In this document: positions 21,136 through 43,420 of the stretch, in pieces
How positions within the stretch are numbered: the first letter of the stretch is position 1
How the letters are laid out: the number at the start of each line of letters is the position of its first letter
Origin: Rhodoplanes sp. Z2-YC6860
GTDB lineage: Bacteria; Pseudomonadota; Alphaproteobacteria; Rhizobiales; Xanthobacteraceae
DNA: 64,000 bases
Reading direction: 5' to 3'
NCBI RefSeq assembly: GCF_001579845.1
Contig: NZ_CP007440.1
Span: forward strand, 3,618,029-3,682,028
Notes under the pieces: model-generated
The model's input: only the letters and a program-made list of their open reading frames with translations
What the model was told of the DNA's origin: nothing
Database searches by the model: none
Program-made: the position numbers and the translations under genes

Positions 21136-22113
21136 TCAGTCGTTCCTGGAACGCGCCGCGTGGCGAACATCGCTCGGCGTGCAACCGAAGCGCTGCCGGA
21201 ACAGCCGGTTGAAATGCGAGACGTCGGCGAAGCCGCAATCATAGGCGATCGAACTGATCGGTGCGCCCGTGGGAGGGCGGCGGCGAAGCGCCTTGTGGGC
21301 GGCGGTGAGCCGATGCTCGGTGACGTATTGGGTGAAAGTGGACCCGCTGTCCTCGAAAATCCGCTGCACGTAACGCGCGCTCACGCCGTATTGAGCCGCG
21401 ATCGTGTGCACCGACAGATACGGATCGGTGAAAGCCTTGCGAATGTCGTCTTTCATGGCGCGCAATCGCGCAGCCGCGACCGCAGTCAAGCCGCCGTCCT
21501 GCGCGGTGTCCCGGCTGGCGCCAAGCACGAGCGCCGCGAGATCGTGAATGTGGCTTGCCACCGCCTGGCCGATCTCCGGCAAGCCAAGCGCGAAGTCCTC
21601 TCGCACCAGGCGCAGATAGTGGGTCAGCAGCCGCAACGCCTCGTTGTCGTGTGGAATGGCGCGGCCTGCGGCCCGGTCGAGGTCGGCGACGCGCCCCACC
21701 AGCGGCGCGCGAGGCAGCAGGATGCCGAGGTGATTGCTGCTCGTCAGCACCGCGGCTGCGTCCGTGAAGATCGGAAAAGCGTCGCCGGTCTCGAGGGCAA
21801 CATCCTGGCCGTGCTGCGAGACGGCAGCCTTGGGTCCAAGATTGACGACGAGCCCGACCGAGTCGTCGCCGGACGCGGCCATGGCGCGCGTCCGATCGAA
21901 ACGCGCTGCCGAACCGGTGCAGACGGCCGTGCGCACGCCGGGCAGCGCCTGCAGGATCGCTTCGGCATGGAACGGCTCGCTGGACGAAACGGGCTCGATG
22001 TCGACCGACACCAGACCACGACCGAACTCCTCGCGCCAGCGTGGCAGCCGTTCTCGCTCCGGCAGATCCCGCGTCGAAAATCGAACCGGTGCGAAGGCCG
22101 TATTGGGAGTCAT
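21136..22113 (-). CDS. AraC-family transcriptional regulator (first of tandem pair)
   Basis: A 325-residue regulator with an AraC-binding-like sensor domain (about 20-210) and a C-terminal double helix-turn-helix (about 220-325). The DNA-binding part reads LSVHTIAAQYGVSARYVQRIFEDSG, then IAYDCGFADVSHFNRLFRQRFGCTPSDVR. Its start overlaps the stop of the upstream paralogue by four bases. The ABC importer operon begins about 270 bases further left, so it could be the target, but this is inference. The paired gene is clearly a duplicate. Confidence 0.9.
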   Translation of the reverse strand: MTPNTAFAPVRFSTRDLPERERLPRWREEFGRGLVSVDIEPVSSSEPFHAEAILQALPGVRTAVCTGSAARFDRTRAMAASGDDSVGLVVNLGPKAAVSQHGQDVALETGDAFPIFTDAAAVLTSSNHLGILLPRAPLVGRVADLDRAAGRAIPHDNEALRLLTHYLRLVREDFALGLPEIGQAVASHIHDLAALVLGASRDTAQDGGLTAVAAARLRAMKDDIRKAFTDPYLSVHTIAAQYGVSARYVQRIFEDSGSTFTQYVTEHRLTAAHKALRRRPPTGAPISSIAYDCGFADVSHFNRLFRQRFGCTPSDVRHAARSRND

Positions 22114-23102
22114 CGCTCAGCCCTGGAACGCGCCGCATTGCGGACGTCGGTCGGCGTGCAGCCGAAGCGCTGCCGGAACAGACGGTTGAAATGCGAGACG
22201 TCGGTGAAGCCGCAGTCATAGGCGAGGGTGCTGATCGGCAGTCCGGCGGGCGTGCGGCGACGAAGCGCCTTGTAGGCAGCGGCAAGGCGCTGTTCGGTGA
22301 CATATTGGGTGAACGTCGAACCGCCTTGTTCGAAGATTCTCTGCACGTAGCGGGCGCTCACACCGTATTGCGCGGCGATGTCATGGACCGAAAGGCTGTG
22401 ACGATGGCAGGTCTTGCGAATGGCCTCTTTCATGGCGCGCAATCGGGCGGCCGAGACTCCGCGCGTTCGTGCAAGCTCCGCAGCATCGCGCGTCGCACCA
22501 AGCGCCAGTGCGAGCAGGTCGCAGACATGGTCGATGAAGGCCATCTGCAATTCGGGACTCGACGCGAGGTGGTCGTCCTGGCCGAGTTGCAGATATTGCA
22601 TCAGCATCCGCAGAGCGGGGCTTTCAGCAGGGATGCGTCGCGCGAAAACTGCACCGAGGTCCGGCACGAGCGGGGCCACCAGCGCTCTCGGCAGGGCAAA
22701 CACGGTGTAGCGACACTCGTCCGGGAACGTCAGTGCGCCGACATCGCAATTGCTCATGAGCACGGCGTCGCCGGCAGAAAACTCGGCGCTCCGGCCAAGT
22801 TGCGTTGCGCTCCACTGCGTGTCCATCACGCCGCCGAAGCACACATTGTCGTTGGTGATCAGGCTGGGCGAATTGCATTGGTCCGCGGCCGATGTCGATG
22901 CGCGGATCAGGCCGAGATCGGCAACGCGAAACATCGTCGCGCTGGCGCGAAAATCCTCCGGCGACTTCGGAGCGATGTCGATATTCAGGAGCGTCCGGCC
23001 GAAGGCTTCACGCCAGGCCGAAACCCGCTCGTGCTTCCGGAAGGCATCAGTCGAAAACTGAAAGACCTGCGGAAGCTCTGAAGTGACGCCGTCGCCCGCC
23101 AT
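22110..23102 (-). CDS. AraC-family transcriptional regulator (second of tandem pair)
   Basis: A 330-residue paralogue of the neighbouring regulator, with the same layout: an AraC_binding_2-like sensor domain and a C-terminal HTH_18 domain (IAAQYGVSARYVQRIFEQGG; CGFTDVSHFNRLFRQRFGCTPTDVR). DNA-recognition helices of the two proteins are nearly identical while the sensor halves have diverged strongly, so they may read the same sites with different signals. The two genes overlap by ATGA and must be co-transcribed. The intergenic stretch to the right also serves the divergent secreted-protein genes. Confidence 0.9.
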   Translation of the reverse strand: MAGDGVTSELPQVFQFSTDAFRKHERVSAWREAFGRTLLNIDIAPKSPEDFRASATMFRVADLGLIRASTSAADQCNSPSLITNDNVCFGGVMDTQWSATQLGRSAEFSAGDAVLMSNCDVGALTFPDECRYTVFALPRALVAPLVPDLGAVFARRIPAESPALRMLMQYLQLGQDDHLASSPELQMAFIDHVCDLLALALGATRDAAELARTRGVSAARLRAMKEAIRKTCHRHSLSVHDIAAQYGVSARYVQRIFEQGGSTFTQYVTEQRLAAAYKALRRRTPAGLPISTLAYDCGFTDVSHFNRLFRQRFGCTPTDVRNAARSRAER

Positions 23103-23448
23103 TTTAATTTCAATACAAATGCATACGCGAAAAGAATGACCGATAATCTACATCCGGGAGCGGCGACGTCGCAATCTGCAAATGCCGCAGCGCCGCATAC
23201 AAAGCAGGCGCCTCTTAAGTCCTTCGGCCGTCTCTGATTTTGATCGTGAATCGTCTGCGTCGGTTGATTCAGACGGGCGCTTTTTGTCCATGCGGCAGTT
23301 CGCAATCCGCAAAAAAAGGTTCGCTCCAGTTCAAGCTGTCCCCATGTACAGGCGCGGCGCTAAGACGTAGCCTGACGGTGGGGCGATATCATTGATACTT
23401 GTTCAGTCGTCGTTGTGACGACCGCGAATTCCTATTTGGAGGCTCGCG
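23103..23448. other. Divergent intergenic region between AraC pair and first Cys-pair protein gene
   Basis: No credible gene. The left end is AT-rich, as expected for the araC promoter. A 6-bp stem at 23252-23275 (CGTCTG/CAGACG) followed by GGCGCTTTTT at 23276-23285 could be a terminator or attenuator reading right. A hairpin at 23406-23422 (GTCGTC/GACGAC) sits in the presumed leader of the next gene. TTGGAGG at 23436-23442 is its ribosome-binding site. Confidence 0.45.
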
Positions 23449-26400
23449 ATGAGAATTGCCCGGTTTGTCACCGGCAGCCTTGGCTCGCCGTGTCTTTGCC
23501 ACCTTGCGCTCGTCCTGTTGCTGCTTCCATTGATCGCGCTGTTGCCTGATCGCGCGCGCGCGGATGACGCCGACACCGCCGTGCAGCTTTTCGTCGCCGC
23601 GGGGCAGGCGGCCGGGTTGCCGATCACCGATACGGAAGCGACCGTCGTCACGCAGATCGTGCGGTGCGGCGTCGCCAACCAACAGGACGTTGGAGACTGC
23701 GTGAAGAACGCGGCCATCAAGGCTGTGCTGCAACAGGTGCTGCCTGCCGTGACCGACCCACAAACGGCGAACGTGATCACGGGTGCGGTGACCTGCATCA
23801 CCGGCTCAAACAACCCGGCCGGTTGCGCGGCTCAAGTTGCGACCAACCTCTTGCACTTGCCGGCGGACGCGCAGCCGGCGGTGAACTGCCTGGTCGCCGG
23901 AGGCAATGTCGCCGACTGCAGCAAGAAGCTCGCGGAAGGCATGCTGGTCGACAAGCTTCCTCCGCAAATCCAGGGGGCCGCCGTCTGCGCGCTCGAGGGC
24001 GGCAGCGTCCAGAAATGCGCGACCGATTTCATCACCAAACAGGTGGTCCAAGGTCTGCCGCCCAATTTGCAGGGGCCGGCCAGTCAAATCGTGGGTTGCC
24101 TGGGCGACCCGAACGTTCCCAACTGCGTGAAGAACCAGGTGGGAAACCTGGTCGGAGATCAGATCGGCAAGCAGCTTGGACCGAACGTCGGGCAGTTTTA
24201 TTCGTGCGCGACACAGTCGGGCGCCAATGTCGGTCAATGCGCGGCGAACTTTGCATCAGCCGCGGTGCCGGCCCTTCCTGGCACGCCTCCCGGCACAGAC
24301 GTCGTGGCGAAAGCCACGGTCGCATGCATCACCGCGCCTGACGCCGCCAATTGCATCAACGCGGCCGTCGCGGGCTCGAAGATCGTGGCCCAGAACCCGC
24401 CGATCACCCAGGACGCGATCAATCAGATCAACACCACGATTGCCACGATCCAGAAGCTCAGGCCGGATTCCGGTCCCGCGCCGATCGACGCGAGCCCCAA
24501 TGCCAGCAACCAAGCCACGCTCAAGAACATCATCATGGTGGCGGACGGCATTAAGACCGGGAACTGGGGCGAGGTCGTCACGGGAGGCGGCACCGAGATG
24601 GCGATCATGGCCGGCGACATCATCCTGTCGGTCTTCCTGACGCCGGAGGTGGCGAAGCTGCTCGGTCCAGCCGTTGCAGCGATGATCCACAATGACGAGG
24701 CCGCGGCGCAGCAGGCCATCGACGCCATCGGCAAGGGCGATCCGGTGGCGCTCGCGCAGGTGTTGTTCACCTGGTACGAGACGCAATTCATCGACAAGCC
24801 GTGTGCTTTGCTGGGTGACAGCGCCGCCGTCAACACGGTCTGCGGCGACATGTCCAAGGCGATCCAACAGATCAGCACTTGGGGTGGAGATATCGCGCAT
24901 GCGCTGCTGGGCGTGGGCGAGGATATTCTCAAATGGCTCGGCGTCTGGGGGACGGTCGACACGATCGCAACCGACGTCTGGAACACCGTAAAGGGTGCCA
25001 TTGACGACATCGGTCATTTCCTGGGCCTCGGCAGCGACAGCAATGACTGGAAGCCGGCGGCGGATTGCGGAGGTTTCTCGCCGAAGGATTACTTCGCCAA
25101 CAATTATATCGCCTGCGTGCCGGCCGCGGCCCAAGTTTCCGGGAGCCCCGCCTTGAACGCCAGCATCGGCAGCATGAACAGCGCCTGCGAACAGGCGTTC
25201 GATCGTTGCATTCCGCCAGACAAGCGGGGCAGCGTGGCTTCGACCTGCGCCGCCTTTGGCAACTCGCTCAGCGATGTGGCGAACCAGGTGAGCGCCGCCA
25301 TGGGGACCGCCGCGGATTTGTACACCAGCACCATCGGGCCGGCGTCGTACATCAGTCAGCAATTCCAGGCCGCGCAGGACGCCAAGTTCTTGGACACCCC
25401 TGATTTTTGCAGCGCAAATTTCTGGGACGCCAGCGCGATGTCAGTCTACGCGGGCAACTGCGGCGCCTTCGTCAACAAGCAGTTTCCGAATACAACGCCA
25501 GCGCCAGCGGCATGCTTGGGCATCCCCAGCGCCCGCGGCGCAGTTGCGGCCTGCTTCCACAGCATCAGTCAGTTTGCCAGCGCCGGCGCCGGCCAGACCG
25601 CGCTCGTCGGACCGGGAAGCACTTACTGCAACGCGCAAACGAAGTGGATCAATGATCATCACTGCCATGTCGTGACGGGAAAGCCGCAGATCTTCACAGG
25701 CTCGGGGAAGGACATCACGCTCACCCCGAAAAGCTGGCAGTGCGATAGTGACGTGCTCATAAAATTTCCGGGTGATCAGGTCAGCATTCCTATTCTGGTT
25801 CCGCCAAAGTCCGGCAGCGGCTCCCTGCAGACACCGCCATGGGCCCGCGGAATTGGCGTCGGCAAAGAAATATCGATTCTGGGCGGCGCGGGAGTTTCGA
25901 ATCCGCCGGTCAGCAGCTCCGGCATCAGCACGAGCAGGTCGGGCGATCCGAAAATTCCGGTGACATTCCCCGCGCCGGGTGAGGGCGGCCACGGCCCTGT
26001 GGTTATCCCGCCACCCCGGCCCGGCTTGCCGCTCGGGGCGCCGCCGATGAAACCACCGATCACGGCAGGACTCCCGAAGGGCGGCGGCGGCAGCTCCGGC
26101 ATCAGCATGGTCAACGGCTGCAGCGGCAACGCGCCGGCGGCAGGTTGCCCACCGGCAACGAAGAGCGGAAGTGGTGGCGGTAAGAGTGGCGGCAGTTCCG
26201 GCATCAGCATGGTCAATGGCAACACCAACTCGTCGACGACGAAGTCAGGCACTTCGAAAGGCGGCGGTGGCAGCTCTGGCATCAGCATGGTCAACGGCAA
26301 CACCAATTCATCGACAACGAAGTCGAAGAGCGGCGGCAGCTCTGGTGTCAGCATGATCAATGGCAATAGCGGCAACGCACCGAGGCTGTCGCCGGGGTTC

Positions 26401-26634
26401 AAGGACACGCCGCGCGCGGCGCCGATCATAACGGCGCGGCCGCCGGTGAGCAGCAGCGGCACCAACTCGGCGATGGACCGGCTCGGCGGAGGCTCGATCG
26501 GCTCCGTGTCGGGCGGTGGAGGAGGCAGTGCGGCGCGGCGGTCGGGCTTCGGCGCCGGGACCGGCAGCTCAAGCACATTCAAGACCATTCCCGTGGTGCC
26601 CCGCAACGATCCGAATGATCTGCATGTCCACTGA
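23449..26634 (+). CDS. Large secreted protein with seven Cys-pair repeats and Gly/Ser repeat tail (paralogue A)
   Basis: A 1,061-residue protein of a family I do not recognise. A signal peptide ends near residue 38 (PDRARA before DDADT). Residues about 73-302 hold seven C-x(8-10)-C pairs spaced roughly every 35 residues, e.g. CLVAGGNVADC and CALEGGSVQKC, which looks like a disulfide-stapled helical-repeat domain. A conserved mainly helical core follows (about 350-560; AAMIHNDEAAAQQAIDAI, TWYETQFIDKPCALLG), then a second Cys-rich block (CGGFSPKDYF, SACEQAFDRC). From about 780 on, a Gly/Ser/Thr-rich tail repeats GGSSGISMVNGN. TTGGAGG supports the ATG. Paralogue B follows in the same direction. 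Surface or extracellular location is inferred from the signal peptide and barrel neighbour. Confidence 0.85.
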   Translation: MRIARFVTGSLGSPCLCHLALVLLLLPLIALLPDRARADDADTAVQLFVAAGQAAGLPITDTEATVVTQIVRCGVANQQDVGDCVKNAAIKAVLQQVLPAVTDPQTANVITGAVTCITGSNNPAGCAAQVATNLLHLPADAQPAVNCLVAGGNVADCSKKLAEGMLVDKLPPQIQGAAVCALEGGSVQKCATDFITKQVVQGLPPNLQGPASQIVGCLGDPNVPNCVKNQVGNLVGDQIGKQLGPNVGQFYSCATQSGANVGQCAANFASAAVPALPGTPPGTDVVAKATVACITAPDAANCINAAVAGSKIVAQNPPITQDAINQINTTIATIQKLRPDSGPAPIDASPNASNQATLKNIIMVADGIKTGNWGEVVTGGGTEMAIMAGDIILSVFLTPEVAKLLGPAVAAMIHNDEAAAQQAIDAIGKGDPVALAQVLFTWYETQFIDKPCALLGDSAAVNTVCGDMSKAIQQISTWGGDIAHALLGVGEDILKWLGVWGTVDTIATDVWNTVKGAIDDIGHFLGLGSDSNDWKPAADCGGFSPKDYFANNYIACVPAAAQVSGSPALNASIGSMNSACEQAFDRCIPPDKRGSVASTCAAFGNSLSDVANQVSAAMGTAADLYTSTIGPASYISQQFQAAQDAKFLDTPDFCSANFWDASAMSVYAGNCGAFVNKQFPNTTPAPAACLGIPSARGAVAACFHSISQFASAGAGQTALVGPGSTYCNAQTKWINDHHCHVVTGKPQIFTGSGKDITLTPKSWQCDSDVLIKFPGDQVSIPILVPPKSGSGSLQTPPWARGIGVGKEISILGGAGVSNPPVSSSGISTSRSGDPKIPVTFPAPGEGGHGPVVIPPPRPGLPLGAPPMKPPITAGLPKGGGGSSGISMVNGCSGNAPAAGCPPATKSGSGGGKSGGSSGISMVNGNTNSSTTKSGTSKGGGGSSGISMVNGNTNSSTTKSKSGGSSGVSMINGNSGNAPRLSPGFKDTPRAAPIITARPPVSSSGTNSAMDRLGGGSIGSVSGGGGGSAARRSGFGAGTGSSSTFKTIPVVPRNDPNDLHVH

Positions 26635-27105
26635 TGCAAGGCGCTTTGCGCCTTGCCGTCGCTGTTGAAGGTCATTCGGACGCGTCAGTAGCGGCTCGGT
26701 GGCACACGCTGGCGTGCGCCGTGCTGCCGCAGCCAACGCAGGTCGCATGTCGTTTTTGCGATCCGACCCGCGCCACATGCAATCGCGATGCGCCGGAGCC
26801 TTGGTTCGTTGCGAGCCAGGAATTGACCGTCGATGTCGGGAACCGCCAGATAACTCGTGGAAAGGTACGCAATCTGCAAAGTCAGCTTCGCTCAGCGCCA
26901 AGACGCCGGAAGGAATTTATGCAGAAACTAGGTTTGCTTGTCCGGTCTGGCTAAAGGCCTGATTTATCGAATGATACAGGAACCCGCTTTGGGTGGATTT
27001 TGCTGTGGTTGCATGTTGAATGCCGATGTCAGACAATCGAATCTGGTTTAGCGGTATCTCTAATACTGACGATTGTTAATTGGAATAATCGCGAAGGGGC
27101 GCGCG
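26635..27105. other. Intergenic region between the two Cys-pair protein genes
   Basis: No supported gene in 471 bases; the open frames here lack start signals and conserved content. A hairpin begins right after the stop codon at 26636-26656 (GCAAGGCG/CGCCTTGC) without a T-run, perhaps an mRNA 3'-end stabiliser or weak terminator. The right third is AT-rich and probably contains a promoter for paralogue B, whose ribosome site AAGGGG lies at 27094-27099. Confidence 0.45.
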
Positions 27106-30100
27106 ATGAAACAGTTGGTCTTCGGCTTTGTTGCCGACAAGTATCTTCGTCGTTTTCTGTTTGCGCTGTCGTTGTTTGCGCTGAACCCGGCGCCGTTTGA
27201 TTCAGCCCGTGCTGATGACAACACGGATGCCGCCAACACCGCCGTGCAGATTTTCGTCACGGCGGGGCAGGCGGCTGGGCTGCCGATCACACAGGATGAA
27301 GCCGCGATCGTCACGCAGATCGTCGCGTGCGGCGTTGCCGGCTCAAATGTCGCTACGTGCGTCAAGAATGCGGCCGTCACCACGGTACTGCAAAAAGCCG
27401 GCATCACCGACCCCGTCATTACGGATGCGGTCAACTGCCTGACTGATGGCACCAAAGCAGAGACCTGCGCGACCAAAGCCGTTATCGCTGTCGCGAAATT
27501 GCCCCCGGACGTTCAGCCCGCGGCGTCTTGCATGCTCGGCGGCGGGAACGTCGTCGATTGCGGTAAGAAACTCGCCGAAGGCGTGGTGCTCGACAAGGTC
27601 CCGGCCGAAATCCAGCCGGTCGCCAAGTGCGTCATCGAGGGCGGCAAGGCGCAAGGCTGCGTGACCGATTTCGTCACACAGCAGATCGTCAAGAACCTGC
27701 CGACACAGCCGGTCAATTTGCAGACGCTGGCGCCTCAAGTGGTCGGCTGCCTGAGCGCGTCAAACGTCGGCGACTGCATGACCAAGGCTGTCGTCAACTT
27801 GACGAAGGATCAGCAAGGACCACTTGCGCCGCTCATCAGTTGCGCGACGCAGTCGGGTGCCAATCTCGGACAGTGCGCTGCCACCTTTGCGGCGAGCAAC
27901 CTGCCGACCCTGCCGACGGTGGGTGGGGTTGATCCCAATGCCGCAGCCAAGGCCGTTGTCACATGCGCCGGCAGTGCCGACTTCAATAAGTGCGTCACCG
28001 ACGCGGGAGTGAAGCAGGCGAAGGATTTGACGAACCAAGTCGTCAATCAAGCCGGGCTCGCGGGCATCCAGGCGGCGCTCGACACCATCAACAAGCTCAA
28101 GCCCGACGCTCCGCTCACGATCGACGCGGGCGTGGACAGCAAGAACATCGCCACGCTCCAGAATATCCTGAAGGTGGCTGACGGAATCAAACACAAGGAC
28201 TGGGGCGAGGTCGTCATGGCGGCCGGACCTGAGCTCGCAATCGTCGCGGGCAATATTCTTTTGTCGATTTTCCTTACGCCGGCGGCAGCGGACCTGCTTG
28301 GCCCCGCGGTTGCGGCGATGATCCACAATGACGCGGCTGCCGCGCAGCTGGCGCTTCAGGCCATTGCGAAAGGCGACGTCGTCGCGCTCGCCCAGGTGGT
28401 GTTCACCTGGTACGAGACCCAATTCATCGACAAGCCCTGCGCGCTGCTGGGCAAAGACGTGCAGGATACCGTCTGCGGCGCGCTGTCCGACGCGATCAAG
28501 ACGATCAGCGAGGCGGGCGGCGACTTGGCCAAGAAGGTTTTGGCCATGGGTGAGGATATCCTGAAATGGATCGGGATATGGGGAACGGTCGACTCGCTCG
28601 CGACCACGGCCTGGAACGTGGTGTCGGGCGCCATCGACGACATCGGCCATTTCCTGGGCCTCGGCGGCGGCGATGGCGACAAGTGGAAGCCGGCCCCGAG
28701 TTGCGGAAGCTTCTCTCCCAAGGATTATTTCGCCAACAGCTACCTCGCTTGTCTGCCCGCAGCGGTCCAACGCCCGCAGGGTACGATCAACGCCAGCCTT
28801 GCGAACATGAACAGTGCCTGCGAGCAGGCGTTCGATGCGTGCATCGCGCCAGAAAATCGCGGCAAGGTTCCTTCGACTTGTGCGGCAATGGGCAAATCGC
28901 TCAGCGATCTGGCGAACCAGGTCAGCGCCAGCATGGGAACCGCGGCGGACATGTATTCAAATACGCTGGGGCCGGCGGCGTTTGTGAGTGCCGCATTCGA
29001 GAAAGCCAAGCAAGATGGCTTGAAGTGGGGGCTCTTCAAAAACACCGGCATCCCCGATTTCTGCAGCCCCGACTTTTGGAGTTCGGCCATGCAGAATTCC
29101 TATGTCAGCCAGTGCTCGGGCTTCGTGAACCAGCAGTTTCCTGGCATGAAAGCGAGCCCGGCGGCATGCAGCGCCATCCAGACCCAGGCGTATGACGATC
29201 GGGCGGGTGGCTCTTGCCGCTTGAGCCTCCAGGCCGCGCTCGGCGCGATGCAAGCCACCGGGAAAAATCTTGTCGGGCCGAACAGCACTTTCTGCAAAGC
29301 GCAGCAAAAGGAGATCGCGGACAATCCTTGCAGGATCACAAGGACGTTGGATTTCCCTGAGGCCAACGTGTTTGGCGTCGTCGATCCCTCCAGCATTGTC
29401 TGCGATCCACCCAGCCGTCGCACGGACATGCCTCACGACAATCCGCTTCTGCCACTGCCGCCGTCAGGCGACACCTTCAAACCCTTCCCGGGGGGAATGC
29501 AGAGGCCTGACCAGGTTCTCTTCCCTCCGCAAGGCAGCAGCGGTTGGAGCGGCGTCAACAACAACACCAACGAAGGCACCCTGAGAACTTTCCCGGGCGG
29601 AATACCGAAGCCTGGCGACATCCTTTTGCCGGGCAGCAGCTCCGGCTCCAACACGACCAAAGCCACCGATCCGAAGATCAAGCCGCCGATCCTGGGCGCG
29701 CTTCCAAAGGCAAACAGCAGCGGCAGCTCGGGCGTCAGCATGATCAACGGCTGCAGCGGCAACTCGCCGGCGGCGGGATGCCCGCCGTCGAAGAGACAGA
29801 GAGTGATCCGGGTGCCGCGAGGCACACCGGCGCTTGTTGATCGAGGACCGCCGAATGCGGGCAGCAGCGGCAGCAATTCAGCCATGGATCGCCTTGGCGG
29901 CGGCGGCATGGGCAACCTGGACGCGATTTCGGGCAACCGGACCTTCACCAGCGGCCCTGCGAAGATCGACGTTCCGCGGCGCCCCCCCGTCAGAACCGGC
30001 AACAGCAGTGGCAGTTCGGGCATCAGCACCTCGAAGCCGATTCCCGGCAGCGGTGGAGGCGGGCCGGTCAAGCCGAGCAGCAGCAGCGGCGGCAGTTCGG

Positions 30101-30330
30101 GCTACAGCACGTCCAAAGCCGGCAACGCCGGCGGCAGCTCTGGGATCAGCACCTCCAGGCCCATACCCAGCGGCAACAGTGGCGGCAGCTCGGGCGCCAG
30201 CACCTCAAGGCCGGCTCCGGCGCCGACTCGGCCGTCGGCGCCGCGACCGCCGGCACCGAGAAACGATCCGATCGACTATGGCGGCTGCGCGGGTTGCGGC
30301 CAGAAGAAGGACGATCTGATTGTCCGGTGA
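27106..30330 (+). CDS. Large secreted protein with seven Cys-pair repeats and Gly/Ser repeat tail (paralogue B)
   Basis: A 1,074-residue paralogue of the preceding large protein. A signal peptide ends near residue 39 (FDSARA before DDN). The same seven C-x(8-10)-C pairs occur in the same order (e.g. CMLGGGNVVDC, CVIEGGKAQGC, CATQSGANLGQC), followed by the shared core (MIHNDAAAAQLALQAI; TWYETQFIDKPCALLG; WGTVDSLATTAWN) and second Cys block (CGSFSPKDYF; SACEQAFDAC). The tail differs in detail: GSSGVSMINGCSGN, SNSAMDRLGGGGMG and several GGSSGxSTS repeats, ending in GGCAGCGQKKD. The ATG at 27106 with AAGGGG six bases upstream is preferred to a TTG at 27073. Function unknown; the conserved pairs suggest oxidative folding in the periplasm or outside. 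Confidence 0.85.
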   Translation: MKQLVFGFVADKYLRRFLFALSLFALNPAPFDSARADDNTDAANTAVQIFVTAGQAAGLPITQDEAAIVTQIVACGVAGSNVATCVKNAAVTTVLQKAGITDPVITDAVNCLTDGTKAETCATKAVIAVAKLPPDVQPAASCMLGGGNVVDCGKKLAEGVVLDKVPAEIQPVAKCVIEGGKAQGCVTDFVTQQIVKNLPTQPVNLQTLAPQVVGCLSASNVGDCMTKAVVNLTKDQQGPLAPLISCATQSGANLGQCAATFAASNLPTLPTVGGVDPNAAAKAVVTCAGSADFNKCVTDAGVKQAKDLTNQVVNQAGLAGIQAALDTINKLKPDAPLTIDAGVDSKNIATLQNILKVADGIKHKDWGEVVMAAGPELAIVAGNILLSIFLTPAAADLLGPAVAAMIHNDAAAAQLALQAIAKGDVVALAQVVFTWYETQFIDKPCALLGKDVQDTVCGALSDAIKTISEAGGDLAKKVLAMGEDILKWIGIWGTVDSLATTAWNVVSGAIDDIGHFLGLGGGDGDKWKPAPSCGSFSPKDYFANSYLACLPAAVQRPQGTINASLANMNSACEQAFDACIAPENRGKVPSTCAAMGKSLSDLANQVSASMGTAADMYSNTLGPAAFVSAAFEKAKQDGLKWGLFKNTGIPDFCSPDFWSSAMQNSYVSQCSGFVNQQFPGMKASPAACSAIQTQAYDDRAGGSCRLSLQAALGAMQATGKNLVGPNSTFCKAQQKEIADNPCRITRTLDFPEANVFGVVDPSSIVCDPPSRRTDMPHDNPLLPLPPSGDTFKPFPGGMQRPDQVLFPPQGSSGWSGVNNNTNEGTLRTFPGGIPKPGDILLPGSSSGSNTTKATDPKIKPPILGALPKANSSGSSGVSMINGCSGNSPAAGCPPSKRQRVIRVPRGTPALVDRGPPNAGSSGSNSAMDRLGGGGMGNLDAISGNRTFTSGPAKIDVPRRPPVRTGNSSGSSGISTSKPIPGSGGGGPVKPSSSSGGSSGYSTSKAGNAGGSSGISTSRPIPSGNSGGSSGASTSRPAPAPTRPSAPRPPAPRNDPIDYGGCAGCGQKKDDLIVR

Positions 30331-30427
30331 CACCACAACTGCGGCTTGTAAGCCACACCCACGGGGTTTCGTTCTTGATCCCCATCGGAATGTGGCCGGA
30401 ATGGGCCGCAAGGCTGGACAGGGCATG

Positions 30428-30449
30428 GGGAACATTAAAAAATATTCCC
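30428..30449. promoter_or_regulatory. Inverted repeat upstream of the double-barrel OMP gene
   Basis: Arms GGGAACATT (30428-30436) and AATATTCCC (30441-30449) match at 8 of 9 positions around an AAAA spacer. It lies 33 bases before the GTG start of the outer-membrane protein gene and near its AGGGGG ribosome site. The position and symmetry suggest an operator, but a stem in the leader RNA is also possible. Confidence 0.4.
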
Positions 30450-30482
30450 ATTGCACGACCGTTGATTGTAGGGGGCGATAAA

Positions 30483-32525
30483 GTGTCGAGGTCCACGGCT
30501 CGTTCTCGTTTGATATTGCCGGGCGGCGTCGCTGCCGCCATGGCGCTGGTATGCGGCGGGGCCGCTCTCGGTGCGGATATCCCGATGCCGGTGAAAGCCG
30601 TGCCGGTCGCGGCTCCGTCCTGGTCGGGTTGTTATGCCGGCCTTCAGCTTGGCGGCGCGCAGTCCGACACGCGCTGGAATTACCAGAACAACAACCCCTA
30701 CGACGCCATCGATCCGGCTCAGCCCGTTCTGGTCACGGCCCAGACGTTCCGCCAGCTCCGCTTCGCGGGCGGCGCCCAGGCCGGCTGCAATATGAGCTAC
30801 AGCGGTCCGTGGATGCTCGGCATGGAGCTCGGTTGGATCGCGAAACCGGAAGACAAGACGGAAAGCAACGGCGTCAACCCGATCACGGGCCCGGGCCCAG
30901 GCTTTGTCGGCAGCGTTCGCACCGATATCAAATCGATCCTCAGTGTCACCGGCCGGGTCGGCTACAGCTTCATGCCCGACTGGCTGGTTTATGCGAAGGG
31001 CGGCTACGCTGCCGCGTATATCGAGTTGCGCGGCAACATCACGCCCGGCGGTGGCCTCGAGGCCTTCACCTGGAACGACACGAACTGGCACAGCGGCTGG
31101 ACCGCAGGCGCTGGTGTCGAGTACCGGCTGTTCCGCAACGTCACCATCGGCGCCGAGTACAATTATTATCGATTCGGCATGGAGAAATATTCTTCCGGCC
31201 CGCTGGTCGGCGTTCCCGCAGCCAATCAGGTTCAGCTCAAGGCCGATGCCGACGTCCACACCGTGATGGCGCGGCTGAACTTCTACGATCCGAACTCGCC
31301 CGTGGCGCGCGCTGTCAGCGCCAATTCCAATGGACCTCGCGGCGAGTTCTCGTCGTTCCTCACGAGTTCGGTCAACTACGCCTCGTGGTACGGCTCTCGC
31401 GGCCCGAACGTGTTCGCGCCGGACAGGGGCAAAGGCGATCAGGTTTATTCTCCGGTCGCGGCCGGCATCGATTATGTCGAGCCCAACAGCTACAAGCTCG
31501 AATTGCGCGGCAAGGGCGGTTACGTCTACGCCCGGCAGGCAACCGCGGGGCAGAACGCCGTATATGAAGGACCGGTCGACACCCAGACCTCGGTCAACGT
31601 GGTGATGCTGAACTTCGACAACGTCCGGCCGCAGTTCGGCGTGGCGATGAATTTGCCGACCGGCACGTCCTATCTGCCGAACAACCAGCGCTTCACCCGT
31701 ATGGATCCGGACCTCGTCCCGGTGGGCGCCTATGGCGCGGGCTTCAACATCAATCCCACCGCGGGTTTTGTGATGGGCCTCAACAAGGACACCGCGGTGT
31801 CGTTCTCGGTCGGCTACGCCTGGAACGGCAAGTTCGTGCGCGAAGGTGTCGACCTGAATGCCGGCAACGGGTTTGGCACGGGCGCGTTCGATCTCAAGCA
31901 GCACATCGACCCGGCCGATGTGTTCACCGCCAACGCCAATATCACGACGCAGATCGACAACCTTACGCTGCTGGGATCGTTCGCCTACATGTCCGAGGGC
32001 AATACGACCATCGACGGCGTGAACAGCGGCAAGACAGGCGCGCGCTACAACACCAATCTCACCGCCACGTGGCAGTTGACCAAGCAAGCGGCACTCACGA
32101 CCAACACGTCGTGGAGCTTCGCGGAGAAAAACGACATCATCCTGCCGGGCGGCGGCATCGGCACCGAGCCCCACAACTCCAACAGCAATGTCGTGATCGG
32201 CTCGATCGAGCCAAGTTACATGCTGACGGAGCAGTTGCGGCTTGCCGTGTCGTACAGCTTCCTGTGGCGCGACGCGAACTACTACGACCAGATCCAAGCC
32301 CAGTTCATCCCGGCCAAGCAGAAGCACACCGCCGGCGTGTCCGCGATCTATGCGATCTCTCCGACCGCGAGCATCGAGGCCAAGGGCTCGTACTCCTTTA
32401 TCCACCAGGAAGACAGCGCTATTCTGCCGACGTCGCTGGGGCCGCCCGTGGTATCGTCGGCGCAGCCGCCGAGCCTGGACTACAGGGCTTGGGCCGTATC
32501 CACGACAGCGAACCTTCGCTTTTGA
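30483..32525 (+). CDS. Outer-membrane protein with two predicted beta-barrel domains
   Basis: A 680-residue secreted protein. A signal peptide ends at about residue 31 (CGGAALGA before DIPMP). Residues 45-270 resemble an Omp25/Omp31-type eight-stranded porin-family barrel (SWSGCYAGLQLGG; SVTGRVGYSFMPDWLVYAKGG; GVEYRLFRNVTIGAEYNYY). Residues about 290-680 look like a second, larger barrel (FDNVRPQFGVAMNLPTGTSY resembles MetA-pathway/transporter barrels) and the chain ends ANLRF with a terminal Phe, the usual barrel-assembly signal. The GTG start is chosen for the AGGGGG site and the signal peptide; the frame is open further upstream but overlaps paralogue B. It lies directly downstream of the two Cys-pair proteins. 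Confidence 0.82.
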   Translation: MSRSTARSRLILPGGVAAAMALVCGGAALGADIPMPVKAVPVAAPSWSGCYAGLQLGGAQSDTRWNYQNNNPYDAIDPAQPVLVTAQTFRQLRFAGGAQAGCNMSYSGPWMLGMELGWIAKPEDKTESNGVNPITGPGPGFVGSVRTDIKSILSVTGRVGYSFMPDWLVYAKGGYAAAYIELRGNITPGGGLEAFTWNDTNWHSGWTAGAGVEYRLFRNVTIGAEYNYYRFGMEKYSSGPLVGVPAANQVQLKADADVHTVMARLNFYDPNSPVARAVSANSNGPRGEFSSFLTSSVNYASWYGSRGPNVFAPDRGKGDQVYSPVAAGIDYVEPNSYKLELRGKGGYVYARQATAGQNAVYEGPVDTQTSVNVVMLNFDNVRPQFGVAMNLPTGTSYLPNNQRFTRMDPDLVPVGAYGAGFNINPTAGFVMGLNKDTAVSFSVGYAWNGKFVREGVDLNAGNGFGTGAFDLKQHIDPADVFTANANITTQIDNLTLLGSFAYMSEGNTTIDGVNSGKTGARYNTNLTATWQLTKQAALTTNTSWSFAEKNDIILPGGGIGTEPHNSNSNVVIGSIEPSYMLTEQLRLAVSYSFLWRDANYYDQIQAQFIPAKQKHTAGVSAIYAISPTASIEAKGSYSFIHQEDSAILPTSLGPPVVSSAQPPSLDYRAWAVSTTANLRF

Positions 32526-32540
32526 GCCAGGAGCAGGATC

Positions 32541-32891
32541 ATGAACCTCACTCGAGTGTCGGCCGCTTGCTTCGCTCTCGCAGTCGCGTTCTCGGCGGGG
32601 ACTGCTGACGCGCAATCCCAACGCAGGCTCGCGGCGGCTGCTCCGCCTGCGCCACCCGTGCAGAAGTGCCTGAAGGCGCTCGACGGATCGTGCACGAACC
32701 CGGATATGGTCGAGGCCGCGCGCTTGCGCGCGGTCGTGCTGGCGTCGGAGCGCGTCTCCTATTTCGGCACGCCGGCCGGCACGATCGGCGGACCGTTCAT
32801 CTCATTCGAGCGGCTGTTCCAGGATAATGTCTTCCTGTTCGGCCTGCCGACCAGCACCTGCATCACCTGCGGCACGCGGCGCACCAAGTAA
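32541..32891 (+). CDS. Small secreted cysteine-containing protein
   Basis: A 116-residue protein with a signal peptide ending near residue 24 (GTADA before QSQRR). The mature part has two Cys pairs: CLKALDGSC and, near the C-terminus, CITCGTRRTK. No known domain recognised. It begins 15 bases after the double-barrel OMP gene with AGGAGCAGGATC upstream, so the two are co-transcribed, and a strong terminator follows. It could be a periplasmic partner of the barrel or of the Cys-pair proteins; that is inference from position and from the shared cysteine theme. Confidence 0.8.
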   Translation: MNLTRVSAACFALAVAFSAGTADAQSQRRLAAAAPPAPPVQKCLKALDGSCTNPDMVEAARLRAVVLASERVSYFGTPAGTIGGPFISFERLFQDNVFLFGLPTSTCITCGTRRTK

Positions 32892-32935: not shown

Positions 32936-32959
32936 CGCGCCGCGTGGCGCGTCTTTTTT
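32936..32959 (+). terminator. Intrinsic terminator closing the secreted-protein cluster
   Basis: Stem CGCGCC/GGCGCG with a GCGT loop followed directly by TCTTTTTT. It lies 45 bases after the small secreted protein gene and marks the right end of the cluster that starts at 23.4 kb. Confidence 0.85.
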
Positions 32960-34040: not shown

Positions 34041-34214
34041 GGATGTTCCACTTTTTTCATATCGGGCAATCCGCGAGCGCCACGCGAGACCTATTAAGAC
34101 GGCTTCCCGACTTAGCGTCAGGTTGCTCCTGACGGTAAAACTATGCGGCCGATGCATCTTTTTACATACTTGGAAGTTGGGGAGTGCTTACTCTCGTGCG
34201 ATGGACCACCCCCA

Positions 34215-34478
34215 ATGACCGCCGACAGTCCGTTCGTCCCCTGTGAAAAATGCGGGGGACGGACGATTTTTACGACACTTATCCAGCCGCTAGGCGATGA
34301 ACCTGGACACCGCATCTATACGTGCCATGCGTGTAAGCGACTGACGTGGGTTCAATGGTGGGGCTGGCAACCAGAGCCTGAGCCGCAACCGCCTCGAGCC
34401 CCGCAAGAACAGCAGCAACAGCAGCAGCAGCAACAGCAACAGCCTCAGAAAATGCCCGACGGTTCGAGCGGACAGTAG
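34215..34478 (+). CDS. Small zinc-ribbon protein with poly-Gln tail
   Basis: An 87-residue protein. The N-terminal half is a zinc ribbon (VPCEKCGGRTIF ... YTCHACKRLTWVQWW) and the C-terminal half is Pro/Gln-rich with eleven consecutive Gln encoded by mixed CAG/CAA codons at 34410-34442. The ATG at 34215 lies just before the ribbon; an upstream ATG at 34143 would add 24 unconserved residues. Function unknown. Confidence 0.72.
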   Translation: MTADSPFVPCEKCGGRTIFTTLIQPLGDEPGHRIYTCHACKRLTWVQWWGWQPEPEPQPPRAPQEQQQQQQQQQQQPQKMPDGSSGQ

Positions 34479-35395: not shown

Positions 35396-35790
35396 GTGGC
35401 GCCTGCAGGCGTGGTTCGTACCCATGTCCCAGGGTGTTCCGCCATCGACCGCCCCCGCTAAAGAGGGGGCCGCCCGCAAGGGCAGGGTGTCCGGATGAAG
35501 GGTCATGGCAACATGGCCTGGATAAGGGTCCGTCCCTCCGGGGTGCACTCTTTCGATGGCCGCGCAAAAAATCGCCGCGGTGGAGCGCCGGAAGGCGTGC
35601 GTGCCGCAAGGCACGCGGGCACCCCTCGCAAGGGTGCTCAACGTAGGCGTGGCGCTGACCGGCGCTCCGCTCCCTCACTCATGTGAGGGACAAAGAAGGA
35701 TAGAGGCGCTGGCCCCGCGCCTGCTTTGAAGGGGGTGATGAATCACGCCTTGATGGATGTTGAAGGGATGCGCGAGAGCGCGGGCTGTTT
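35396..35790. ncRNA. Candidate structured non-coding RNA (multi-hairpin, GNRA-type loops)
   Basis: No convincing gene lies between 35256 and 35864. The stretch contains consecutive hairpins: 35400-35411 palindrome CGCCTGCAGGCG; 35451-35470 (GCCCCC/GGGGGC); 35472-35483 (GCCC-GCAA-GGGC); 35501-35518 (7 bp, GCAA loop); 35586-35597 (CGCC-GGAA-GGCG); 35599-35616 (GCGTGCC-GCAA-GGCACGC); 35619-35637 (GCACCC/GGGTGC); 35671-35690 (TCCCTCAC/GTGAGGGA); 35704-35722 (AGGCGC/GCGCCT); 35770-35781 (GCGC-GAGA-GCGC). Five loops fit the GNRA consensus. The order and density suggest a folded RNA; GNRA loops read on the + strand favour that strand. Family unknown. Confidence 0.45.
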
Positions 35791-39185: not shown

Positions 39186-40289
39186 ATGAAACGCCGTCAA
39201 TTTCTGAAGGCCGCAGGTCTTAAGGCGGTAGGTCTGGGGGTGGCCGGTTCCGCGTTCGCCGCGCCGGCGATTGCCGAGTCGATGCCCGAGATCAAATGGC
39301 GCTGCACGACCAGCTGGCCAAAGTCGCTCGACACCATCTATGGCGGCGCGGAGACCTTTGCGAAGGCGGTGGCGGAAGCGACCGACAACAGGTTTCAGAT
39401 CCAGGTTTTTGCGGCGGGCGAGATCGTGCCGGGCCTGCAGGCCGCTGACGCGGTGTCCGCCGGAACCGTCGAGATGTGCCACACCTCGTCGTACTACTAC
39501 TTCGGCAAAGACCCCACGTTCACGTTCGGCACGGCGCTGCCGTTCGGCATGAACAAGCGCATGATGGATGCCTGGCTGTTCACCGGCGGCGGCAACGAGC
39601 TGCTGAACGACTTCTACAAGAAGTACAACATCTACGCGATCCCGGCCGGCAACACCGGCGCGCAAATGGGCGGCTGGTTCAGGAAGGAGATCAAGGAGGT
39701 CTCCGACATGAACGGTCTGAAGATGCGGATCGGCGGCTTCGCCGGGCGCATCCTCGCCAAGCTAGGCCTGGTCGCACAGCAGCTGGCCGGTGGCGACATC
39801 TATCCGGCGCTGGAGAAGGGCACGCTCGACGCCGCCGAATGGGTCGGGCCCTATGACGACGAGAAGCTCGGCTTCCAGAAGGTCGCGCAGTACTACTACT
39901 ACCCGGGCTGGTGGGAAGGCGGCCCGGTGATCCACAACTTCATCAACACGTCGAAATGGAATGCGCTGCCGAAGCACTATCAGGCGACCGTGCACAACGC
40001 CTCGCACGTCGCCAACTGCTTGATGGCGGCGAAGTACGACGCCAGCAATCCGGCGGCGCTGAAGCGGCTGATCGCGGGCGGCGCGCAGCTGCGGGCGTTT
40101 CCGACGCCGGTGCTGGAGGCCTCGTTGAAGGCGGCCAACGAGATTTACGCCGAGATCGGCAGGACCAATGCCGACTTCAAGAAGGTCTATGACGCGTTCG
40201 TTTCATTTCGCAACGACCAGTATCTGTGGTGGCAGGTCGCTGAGTATGGCTTCGATACGTTCATGATCCGAGCACGCACGCGCAGCTAA
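39186..40289 (+). CDS. TRAP transporter substrate-binding protein DctP (tandem copy 1)
   Basis: A 367-residue periplasmic binding protein with a Tat-like signal (KRRQFLKAAG, ending AAPAIAES). Fold signatures are WRCTTSWPKSLDTIYGGAETF, IQVFAAGEIVPGLQAADAV and AEWVGPYDDEKLGF. It belongs to the 2-oxo-acid-binding TakP-like branch of DctP proteins, inferred from the EWVGPYDDEKLGF and WWEGGP segments. First of three tandem paralogues on this strand. Its permeases are probably the DctQ-DctM pair encoded on the opposite strand at 44.1-46.3 kb. Confidence 0.93.
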   Translation: MKRRQFLKAAGLKAVGLGVAGSAFAAPAIAESMPEIKWRCTTSWPKSLDTIYGGAETFAKAVAEATDNRFQIQVFAAGEIVPGLQAADAVSAGTVEMCHTSSYYYFGKDPTFTFGTALPFGMNKRMMDAWLFTGGGNELLNDFYKKYNIYAIPAGNTGAQMGGWFRKEIKEVSDMNGLKMRIGGFAGRILAKLGLVAQQLAGGDIYPALEKGTLDAAEWVGPYDDEKLGFQKVAQYYYYPGWWEGGPVIHNFINTSKWNALPKHYQATVHNASHVANCLMAAKYDASNPAALKRLIAGGAQLRAFPTPVLEASLKAANEIYAEIGRTNADFKKVYDAFVSFRNDQYLWWQVAEYGFDTFMIRARTRS

Positions 40290-40451
40290 GGGGGGGCTTA
40301 ATCCGACTAAAGGTGATCCTCGGCGGCTTACCTCCGGGGTTTCCTTTTTCGGTCGGTGGGTTAGAAGGATTCCGTGGCCGGAGCCGGGGACCTTGGGTCT
40401 GCTGCGGCTCTACGCGCGCCGGGCGCGGCATGAACGAGAGGAAAGCAAGCC

Positions 40452-41543
<1,092 letters not shown>

Positions 41544-41572
41544 CGCGGGTATCAATAGGCGAGCAGCAAATC

Positions 41573-41607
41573 CCGGGCCTTCGCGAAAGCGGAGGCCCGG
41601 TTCTTTT
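41573..41607 (+). terminator. Intrinsic terminator after TRAP binding protein 2
   Basis: A perfect 12-bp stem (CCGGGCCTTCGC with GCGGAGGCCCGG, one T-G pair) capped by a GAAA loop, followed by TTCTTTT. It separates the second binding-protein gene from the small secreted protein gene. Confidence 0.88.
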
Positions 41608-41703
41608 GTGCTCTGTCGGCGGTCGTACGTAAAAATCTATAGTTCAGGAACGCGCATCGCAGCAAAGCGTTCCCCGCTGGGAGGACAACACAAGGAGCCA
41701 TCC

Positions 41704-41970
41704 ATGAGAGGACTGATTGTGCTGACCGCACTCGCGGGCGTGGCGCTGGCGAGCCCGGCGTTTGCTGAAGATGTCTATATCGGCGGAAGGGCCGGTGGCG
41801 TCGGAGTGGGCGTCGATGTCGGCCCGGGATATCACCGCGGCTATCGCGAACGCGACGTGTACACCTCGGGATATGATCGCGGCTATGATCGCGGCTATGA
41901 GCGCTGCCGCACCACAGTCATCCGCAGGGACGACGGATCGGTCAAGAAGATCAGGCGCTGCCGCGACTAA
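41704..41970 (+). CDS. Small secreted Gly/Tyr/Arg-rich protein
   Basis: An 88-residue protein with a clear signal peptide (MRGLIVLTALAGVALASPAFA). The mature part is Gly/Val- then Tyr/Arg-rich with the repeated unit YDRGYDRGYE and ends CRTTVIRRDDGSVKKIRRC, two Cys that may bond. An AGGAG ribosome site lies before the ATG. Similar exported proteins of unknown role are common in Bradyrhizobium-like genomes. Confidence 0.82.
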   Translation: MRGLIVLTALAGVALASPAFAEDVYIGGRAGGVGVGVDVGPGYHRGYRERDVYTSGYDRGYDRGYERCRTTVIRRDDGSVKKIRRCRD

Positions 41971-41992
41971 CACCGAGCTTCCTTCGATTGCA

Positions 41993-42023
41993 AACAAGCC
42001 CCGCCCATCGGACGGGGCTTGTT
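41993..42023. terminator. Terminator-like hairpin after the small secreted gene
   Basis: An 11-bp stem (AACAAGCCCCG with CGGGGCTTGTT) around a short loop, 23 bases after the stop codon. The following sequence has few T residues, so efficiency as an intrinsic terminator is uncertain. Confidence 0.6.
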
Positions 42024-42058
42024 CGCTCGAATCGAGGGCGCATCGAAATTTGCCCTCG

Positions 42059-42160
42059 ATGCGACCCCACGCCAAGCACGGTAACGAGTTCAAGGCGCTG
42101 ATCGGACAATTGCGCGCGGCTTGCAACGGCTGCCATGCGGCGTATCTGAAGACCGAATAA
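42059..42160 (+). pseudogene. Remnant of a cytochrome c gene (C-terminal heme-binding end)
   Basis: A 33-codon frame ending with FKALIGQLRAACNGCHAAYL, i.e. a C-x2-C-H heme-attachment motif in the position where class II-type cytochromes c place it near the C-terminus. No signal peptide or upstream cytochrome sequence precedes it: the region just before is the hairpin and junk-like sequence. It is best read as the surviving 3' end of a lost or truncated cytochrome gene between two TRAP binding-protein genes. Confidence 0.55.
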
Positions 42161-42331
42161 CGCACGGCGGATACGCGAATTCATATTGCACTGCGGGGCC
42201 CGACGAAAGGCTCATTCCTCAGCGCGCCGCATTTGCCTAGACTTGTCCTCGCTGTCGGCGTGAGAAGACGTCGCGGTTCGCTTTTGTGCCCCTTCTTGCG
42301 CCGACAAAAAAACAGGCAAAGGGGAAACGTC

Positions 42332-43420
<1,089 letters not shown>

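What the first reader, a model, noticed from the sequence alone, without database searches (positions are those of the whole stretch)
23449..32891. Candidate undescribed secreted system: two giant Cys-pair-repeat paralogues, a double-barrel OMP and a small Cys protein
Seen: two tandem ~1,070-residue secreted proteins share seven C-x(8-10)-C pairs, a conserved helical core, a second Cys block and a Gly/Ser tail. They are followed in the same direction by a protein with features of an outer-membrane barrel, a 116-residue secreted Cys protein and a strong terminator. I recognise no known family for the large proteins. Inference: a surface or secretion module with disulfide-rich passengers and a barrel partner.
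Basis: partly seen in the sequence, partly recalled or inferred. Interest (0 to 1): 0.78.

Follow-up and report, generated by a model that had tools for sequence, protein, structure and literature searches.

The report
Rare disulfide-clasped helical envelope protein pair
Two neighbouring genes make large exported proteins built from helices that are probably stapled by regularly spaced cysteine pairs; the family looks very rare, shares its own control element, and seems to be separate from the outer-membrane channel genes that follow it.

Summary
The sequence observation holds. A (23449-26634) and B (27106-30330) are tandem paralogues (52% identical). Each has an export signal, seven C-x(8-10)-C pairs (0 of 100,000 shuffles), a helical core, a second Cys block and a Gly/Ser/Pro tail. 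Neither significantly matches a Pfam, NCBIfam, PHROGs, PADLOC or PDB family. The proposed four-gene module is not supported. The barrel (C) and small Cys protein (D) are a conserved pair of their own: a D-like gene lies directly behind the barrel in 10 of 11 loci read from other genomes, with no A/B nearby. The only A/B relative found elsewhere (G502, 895 aa) has no recognisable C/D in the 16 kb read. A and B instead share an element, CGCAATCYGCAAA, twice before A and once before B. It is not found elsewhere in the window and has no exact copy in 800 kb of the same genome. Two tandem AraC-type regulators are transcribed divergently beside it. Best reading: A and B are co-regulated, Sec-exported, disulfide-clasped alpha-helical scaffold proteins of the cell envelope. 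They resemble Hcp and CagY repeats in principle but are not detectable members of either. Cell location and function are inferred. The tertiary model failed (pLDDT 39).

The parts
21136..22113 (-). AraC-type regulator 1 (AraC_binding_2 + HTH_18)
   Evidence: Pfam; 48% identical to regulator 2
22110..23102 (-). AraC-type regulator 2, divergent from A
   Evidence: Pfam; only 5 matches at E<=1e-20 in the whole genome, both of these included
23170..23182 (+). shared element CGCAATCTGCAAA, copy 1 before A
23301..23326 (+). shared element, copy 2 before A, long form CGCAATCCGCAAA-N4-G-N-TTCGCTC
23449..26634 (+). A: exported 1061-aa protein: signal peptide about 1-38, seven Cys pairs 73-302, helical core about 345-535, second Cys block 540-765, Gly/Ser/Pro tail with basic pI
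26868..26893 (+). shared element before B, long form CGCAATCTGCAAA-N4-G-N-TTCGCTC
27106..30330 (+). B: exported 1074-aa paralogue of A with the same layout
30483..32525 (+). C: outer-membrane protein, N-terminal small barrel (PF13505) fused to a larger porin/CymA/FadL-like barrel; probably a separate unit with D
   Evidence: the GTG start at 30483 is a judgement (ATG at 30540 is possible)
32541..32891 (+). D: small exported Cys protein with the C-x(n)-G-x-C-[VT]-N motif, partner of the barrel
   Evidence: D-like gene directly behind the barrel in 10 of 11 other loci
32936..32951 (+). intrinsic-terminator-like stem followed by TCTTTTTTGC
   Evidence: 17 terminator-like sites found in the region against a shuffled mean of 9.9, sd 3.3

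Best explanation
A and B are a tandem-duplicated pair of Sec-exported structural proteins. SHOWN by sequence: a signal peptide-like start, seven repeats with paired cysteines, a conserved core, a second conserved Cys block and a low-complexity tail; a shared 13-26-bp element before both genes and not before C; C and D as an independently conserved gene pair. INFERRED: in the oxidising periplasm each C-x(8-10)-C pair forms a disulfide across the turn of a helix hairpin, giving a stiff array of clasped hairpins. The array and core serve as a binding or structural scaffold, and the flexible Gly/Ser/Pro tail acts as a spacer or tether at or beyond the outer membrane. Expression of A and B is switched together by the divergently encoded AraC-type pair acting at the shared element. 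C and D are an outer-membrane channel plus small partner that lie next to A/B, perhaps reached by read-through from B, but are not their exporter.
For: Cys pairing beyond chance and 27 of 28 mature Cys kept between paralogues of about 52% identity. Repeat flanks alike beyond the Cys. The distant relative G502 L037:6464-9151 keeps four pairs, the core and the start of the second Cys block but carries a different tail, so the repeats plus core are the conserved unit and the tail is exchangeable. In the predicted secondary structure each of the 7 first Cys lies within 3 residues of a helix end and each of the 7 second Cys is 3 residues into the next helix, where about 32% of all positions lie in either such zone (from a model of very low confidence). 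Element CGCAATCYGCAAA: 3 sites in the window, none elsewhere in it at <=1 mismatch; 0 exact and 5 one-mismatch sites in 800 kb of the same genome; 160 of 20,000 shuffles of the two upstream regions share some exact 13-mer, but 0 give the triple seen; the 26-bp form fits only the second A site and the B site. Barrel and D-like gene together in 10 of 11 other loci, with no A/B match there by tblastn at E<=1.
Against: No disulfide, location, expression or binding has been measured. The A4 model has mean pLDDT 39, so the clasped-hairpin geometry is not established. The element could partly be leftover homology from the tandem duplication, its pattern was derived from the sites themselves, and nothing shows that the AraC proteins bind it; the regulator-barrel stretches examined in L047 and L041 have no copy with fewer than 3 mismatches. 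A regulator of the same AraC group lies near the barrel in 2 of 11 other loci (L047, L041), which leaves room for one shared locus with C/D.
Confidence: 0.5

Rival explanations
1. A, B, C and D are one surface or secretion module: the double barrel exports or anchors the Cys-rich passengers and D assists.
For: Same strand, B-C gap of 152 bp, no terminator-like site on the plus strand between B and C; a related AraC regulator also sits near the barrel in L047 and L041; G502's A-relative has LuxR-like regulators that fall in one BLAST cluster with genes near the barrel in L040, L041 and L042 (the LuxR domain was tested and found in two of these five).
Against: C/D-like pairs occur without A/B in 10 of 11 other loci; the A-relative in G502 has no recognisable C/D beside it; the shared element is not found before C; a sigma-70-like site lies between B and C at 30415-30443, though one such site is no more than chance; C's Pfam matches include no POTRA or Omp85-type domain, and its C-terminal barrel is porin/CymA/FadL-like.
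Confidence: 0.15
2. A and B are membrane-active proteins: the moderately hydrophobic core segment inserts into membranes (colicin-like), with the Cys array as receptor-binding part.
For: A hydrophobic stretch in the core (peak mean hydropathy 1.62-1.98 at A 384-409 and B 369-406) is kept in the G502 relative (232-254).
Against: Borderline hydropathy that fits a buried helix equally; no significant family match to any toxin or phage group; two tandem copies with no immunity-like gene recognised by eye.
Confidence: 0.07
3. A and B are decaying or recently arisen orphan genes without a settled role.
For: Very sparse distribution: of the genomes sampled only the window's own and G502.
Against: Long intact frames, 27 of 28 Cys conserved, codon-position bias and a shared upstream element; homologous core in a genome of another family of the order.
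Confidence: 0.08

Closest known systems
Helicobacter cysteine-rich proteins (HcpB/HcpC), disulfide-bridged Sel1-like repeats
   Same: Tandem helix-turn-helix repeats of about 36 residues with disulfides, in exported proteins; seen in passages of PMC3851747 and PMC2581425
   Different: No Sel1 profile match at E<=1; the A4 profile lists only two unrelated weak PDB matches at E<=5, no Hcp entry. A/B are far larger and add a core, a second Cys block and a tail. The passage in PMC3851747 places the Hcp disulfide between one repeat and the next; here the pair spans the predicted turn.
CagY repeat region of the H. pylori Cag type IV secretion filament
   Same: Tandem alpha-helical repeats with regularly spaced Cys in a large surface protein (passages of PMC2581425)
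   Different: No Pfam match; no type IV secretion genes were recognised by eye among the window genes read
   Same: Four Cys pairs, core and start of the second Cys block align (A3)
   Different: Tail made of modules such as CPASRPVGRPPYCCPxxTRYxxGxC; preceded by a 1586-aa DUF11 protein with similar modules and followed by a peptidoglycan-binding-domain protein
Barrel plus small Cys protein pair in other genomes of this bacterial family (L038-L041, L043-L048)
   Same: Homologues of C's C-terminal barrel and D-like proteins in the same order
   Different: Except in L038, the match covers only C's C-terminal barrel, not the N-terminal small barrel; no A/B

Membership tests
Sel1-like / Hcp repeats | Sel1 repeat profile match | tested here: not met
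   No Sel1 match for A or B in Pfam at E<=1; the A4 profile gives only two unrelated weak PDB matches (E 0.28 and 0.36)
Sel1-like / Hcp repeats | 36-38-residue alpha/alpha superhelix | tested here: inconclusive
   Helix-turn-helix pattern predicted, but model pLDDT 39
CagY | CagY repeat profile | tested here: not met
   No Pfam match for A/B to any such family at E<=1
CagY | type IV secretion context | tested here: inconclusive
   Judged only by eye from the window genes read; none recognised
Two-partner secretion / Omp85 exporter (for C) | POTRA or Omp85-type domain | tested here: not met
   Pfam lists OMP_b-brl, OmpA_membrane, Porin_2, DUF7840 and OMP_b-brl_2 only, the last three below their cut-offs
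OMP_b-brl (PF13505) for C's N-terminal half | Profile match above cut-off | tested here: met
   51.1 bits against a cut-off of 28.7, residues 104-308 of the frame from 30294
Porin/CymA/FadL-type barrel for C's C-terminal half | Fold match | tested here: inconclusive
   Model pLDDT 78.5; best E 6.6e-10 but TM only 0.32-0.51 by query length in the 50 rows shown
AraC-type regulators | HTH_18 and AraC_binding_2 matches | tested here: met
   Both window genes
AraC-type regulators as controllers of A/B | Binding to CGCAATCYGCAAA | not testable with these tools
   Needs a binding assay

The most novel reading that the evidence does not exclude
A and B found an undescribed class of disulfide-clasped helical-hairpin envelope scaffold, with a conserved repeat-plus-core head and exchangeable tails. 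It would form a surface or cell-wall-linked layer or fibre switched on by a dedicated pair of AraC-type regulators.
Probability: 0.25. Interest if true: 0.7.

Novelty: new variant of a known kind. Interest (0 to 1): 0.45.

Why it matters
It comes with a testable regulatory switch and a relative whose tail has been exchanged, which shows where the conserved working part lies. It also corrects a tempting operon reading: the neighbouring barrel and small Cys protein look like an independent, repeatedly paired unit of unknown role.

Tried and rejected
Searches for relatives of A/B. Genus, with A: 1 of 11 genomes, the window's own. Family, with A1: 1 of 198. Order, with A: 2 of 397, own and G502. 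Family of G502, with its own protein: 1 of 103, G502 itself. Class and phylum, with A3: 1 of 385 and 1 of 299, own only. Two genome-contig scans (A, A1) and one viral-contig scan (A1), all by a few short peptide patterns: none. Plasmids and phages by tblastn with B: none. In some searches at most 2 to 6 first-look candidates per genome were scored, and I cannot tell whether G502 was in the class and phylum draws, so absence is not proof. The draws overlap and cannot be added up.

A second family search with A3 gave 2 of 391. The extra one, G015 L052 (E 9e-4), lies antisense to another long frame, beside what looks by eye like a HemA-type synthase on the same minus strand; rejected as chance.

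Fold of A/B: model pLDDT 39, so no fold search was made with it. Weak matches not used: Beta-prop_SPT8, DUF4872 and DUF2560 in Pfam, pheromone-binding protein and ATP synthase b in the PDB, PHROG matches of G502 (tail tape measure, E 0.099) and of D (E 0.035, function unknown), EpsL for C, far below its cut-off. Search of the window's genome for the G502 DUF11 neighbour: none (the tool warns that an empty answer there shows nothing). Element near the barrel or A-relative in L047, L041, L038 and L037: nothing with fewer than 3 mismatches. Papers: of three searches aimed at such a family one listed a single unrelated review and two listed nothing; one search listed the Hcp and CagY papers, of which only passages were read.
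Full report
What is there. Four genes lie on the plus strand. A (23449-26634, 1061 aa) and B (27106-30330, 1074 aa) are paralogues of 52% identity. After a signal-peptide-like start, each has exactly 14 cysteines in residues 60-310, all in seven pairs with 8 to 10 residues between. None of 100,000 shuffles of either stretch gives seven such pairs. With the cysteines and loops left out, the flanks of the repeats still resemble one another more than in any of 5000 shuffles in A, B and the G502 relative. In the aligned first ~780 residues 27 of 28 mature cysteines are shared, and third codon positions change most (346 of 754 against 254 and 203), which fits genes kept for their protein. Then follow a core that is predicted helical, a second Cys block and a tail rich in Gly, Ser and Pro. 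The tail of A has a computed pI of 10.9, while its N-terminal part and core are acidic (4.6 and 4.2).

No known family. A and B give no significant match in Pfam and none in NCBIfam (E<=1), PHROGs or PADLOC (E<=0.1), and the profile of A, B and G502 matches no PDB sequence significantly (best E 0.28). The structure model of residues 38-785 of A, with three sequences, has a mean pLDDT of 39 and is not used beyond its helix boundaries. In those, each first Cys of the seven pairs lies 2 or 3 residues before a helix end (in one of seven, one residue after it) and each second Cys lies 3 residues into the next helix; about 32% of positions lie in either kind of zone. This suggests a disulfide across the turn of a helix hairpin, but weakly.

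Distribution. It keeps four pairs, the core with its two cysteines and the start of the second Cys block (spacings 13, 25, 6, 11 against 15, 23, 6, 12 in A). Its tail is quite different: modules such as CPASRPVGRPPYCCP-x(2)-TRY-x(2)-G-x-C, shared with a preceding 1586-aa DUF11 protein whose frame overlaps it by 4 bases, and a peptidoglycan-binding-domain protein follows. So the head is conserved and the tail is exchangeable. Searches of 11, 198, 391, 385 and 299 genomes from genus to phylum found no other relative that I accept; these draws overlap and the first look may miss relatives.

The barrel is another unit. C has an N-terminal small barrel (PF13505) fused to a larger one. The model of the larger part (pLDDT 78.5) resembles CymA, FadL, AlgE and porins at modest TM-scores of 0.32-0.51. 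The list is capped; all 11 rows printed there that cover the larger barrel in other genomes (9 genomes) were read with 6 to 9 kb on most sides, less where a contig ended. Six have a D-like gene directly behind the barrel by a fixed motif, and four more were recognised by eye with a looser scan, so 10 of 11; L042 has none. No A/B match at E<=1 occurs in these 11 stretches. Only in L038 does the match extend over the N-terminal barrel (C 53%; D 48%). At the G502 locus, blastp of C and D against the called genes found nothing.

Regulation. Two tandem AraC-type genes (48% identical) run divergently from A. The upstream regions of A and B share CGCAATCYGCAAA: 23170 and 23301 before A, 26868 before B, all in the same direction. 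There is no further site in the window with up to one mismatch and no exact site in 800 kb of the same genome, about a tenth of it (5 with one mismatch). Of 20,000 shuffles of the two upstream regions 160 share some exact 13-mer and none gives the triple. A longer form with TTCGCTC fits the second A site and the B site only. None lies before C. The pattern was read off these sites, and that the AraC pair binds it is inference. Against a clean split, a related AraC gene also lies near the barrel in L047 (38%) and L041 (28%), and the group has only five matches at E<=1e-20 in the window's genome. One BLAST cluster of regulators holds genes near the barrel in L040, L041 and L042 and two beside the A-relative in G502; the LuxR-type domain was confirmed in the two of these five that were tested. 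How common that family is could not be counted.

Verdict. Best reading: co-regulated, exported, disulfide-clasped helical scaffold proteins. The principle recalls Hcp and CagY repeats (passages of PMC3851747 and PMC2581425), without detectable membership in either.

Noticed in passing
window 23170-23182, 23301-23326, 26868-26893: Element CGCAATCYGCAAA (long form with TTCGCTC in the last two) shared by the upstream regions of A and B and found nowhere else in the window.
   Followed up: yes
window 21136-23102: Two tandem AraC-type paralogues (48% identical) beside two tandem A/B paralogues (52%): possibly one regulator per target.
   Followed up: partly
L037:1707-6467: 1586-aa DUF11 protein whose C-terminal Cys modules match those of the neighbouring A-relative; the frames overlap by 4 bases.
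   Followed up: partly
L038-L041, L043-L048: Repeated pair of a larger outer-membrane barrel and a small exported protein with a motif like C-x(n)-C-[VIAT]-[ND]; no Pfam family for the six small proteins tested, D included.
   Followed up: partly
window 39186-43420: Three tandem genes, 64-69% identical to one another, with starts that look by eye like Tat signals of binding proteins.
   Followed up: no
window 34143-34478: Small frame with a run of about a dozen glutamines near its end.
   Followed up: no
window 35595-35685: tRNA-Ala (CGC) about 2.7 kb downstream of D.
   Followed up: no
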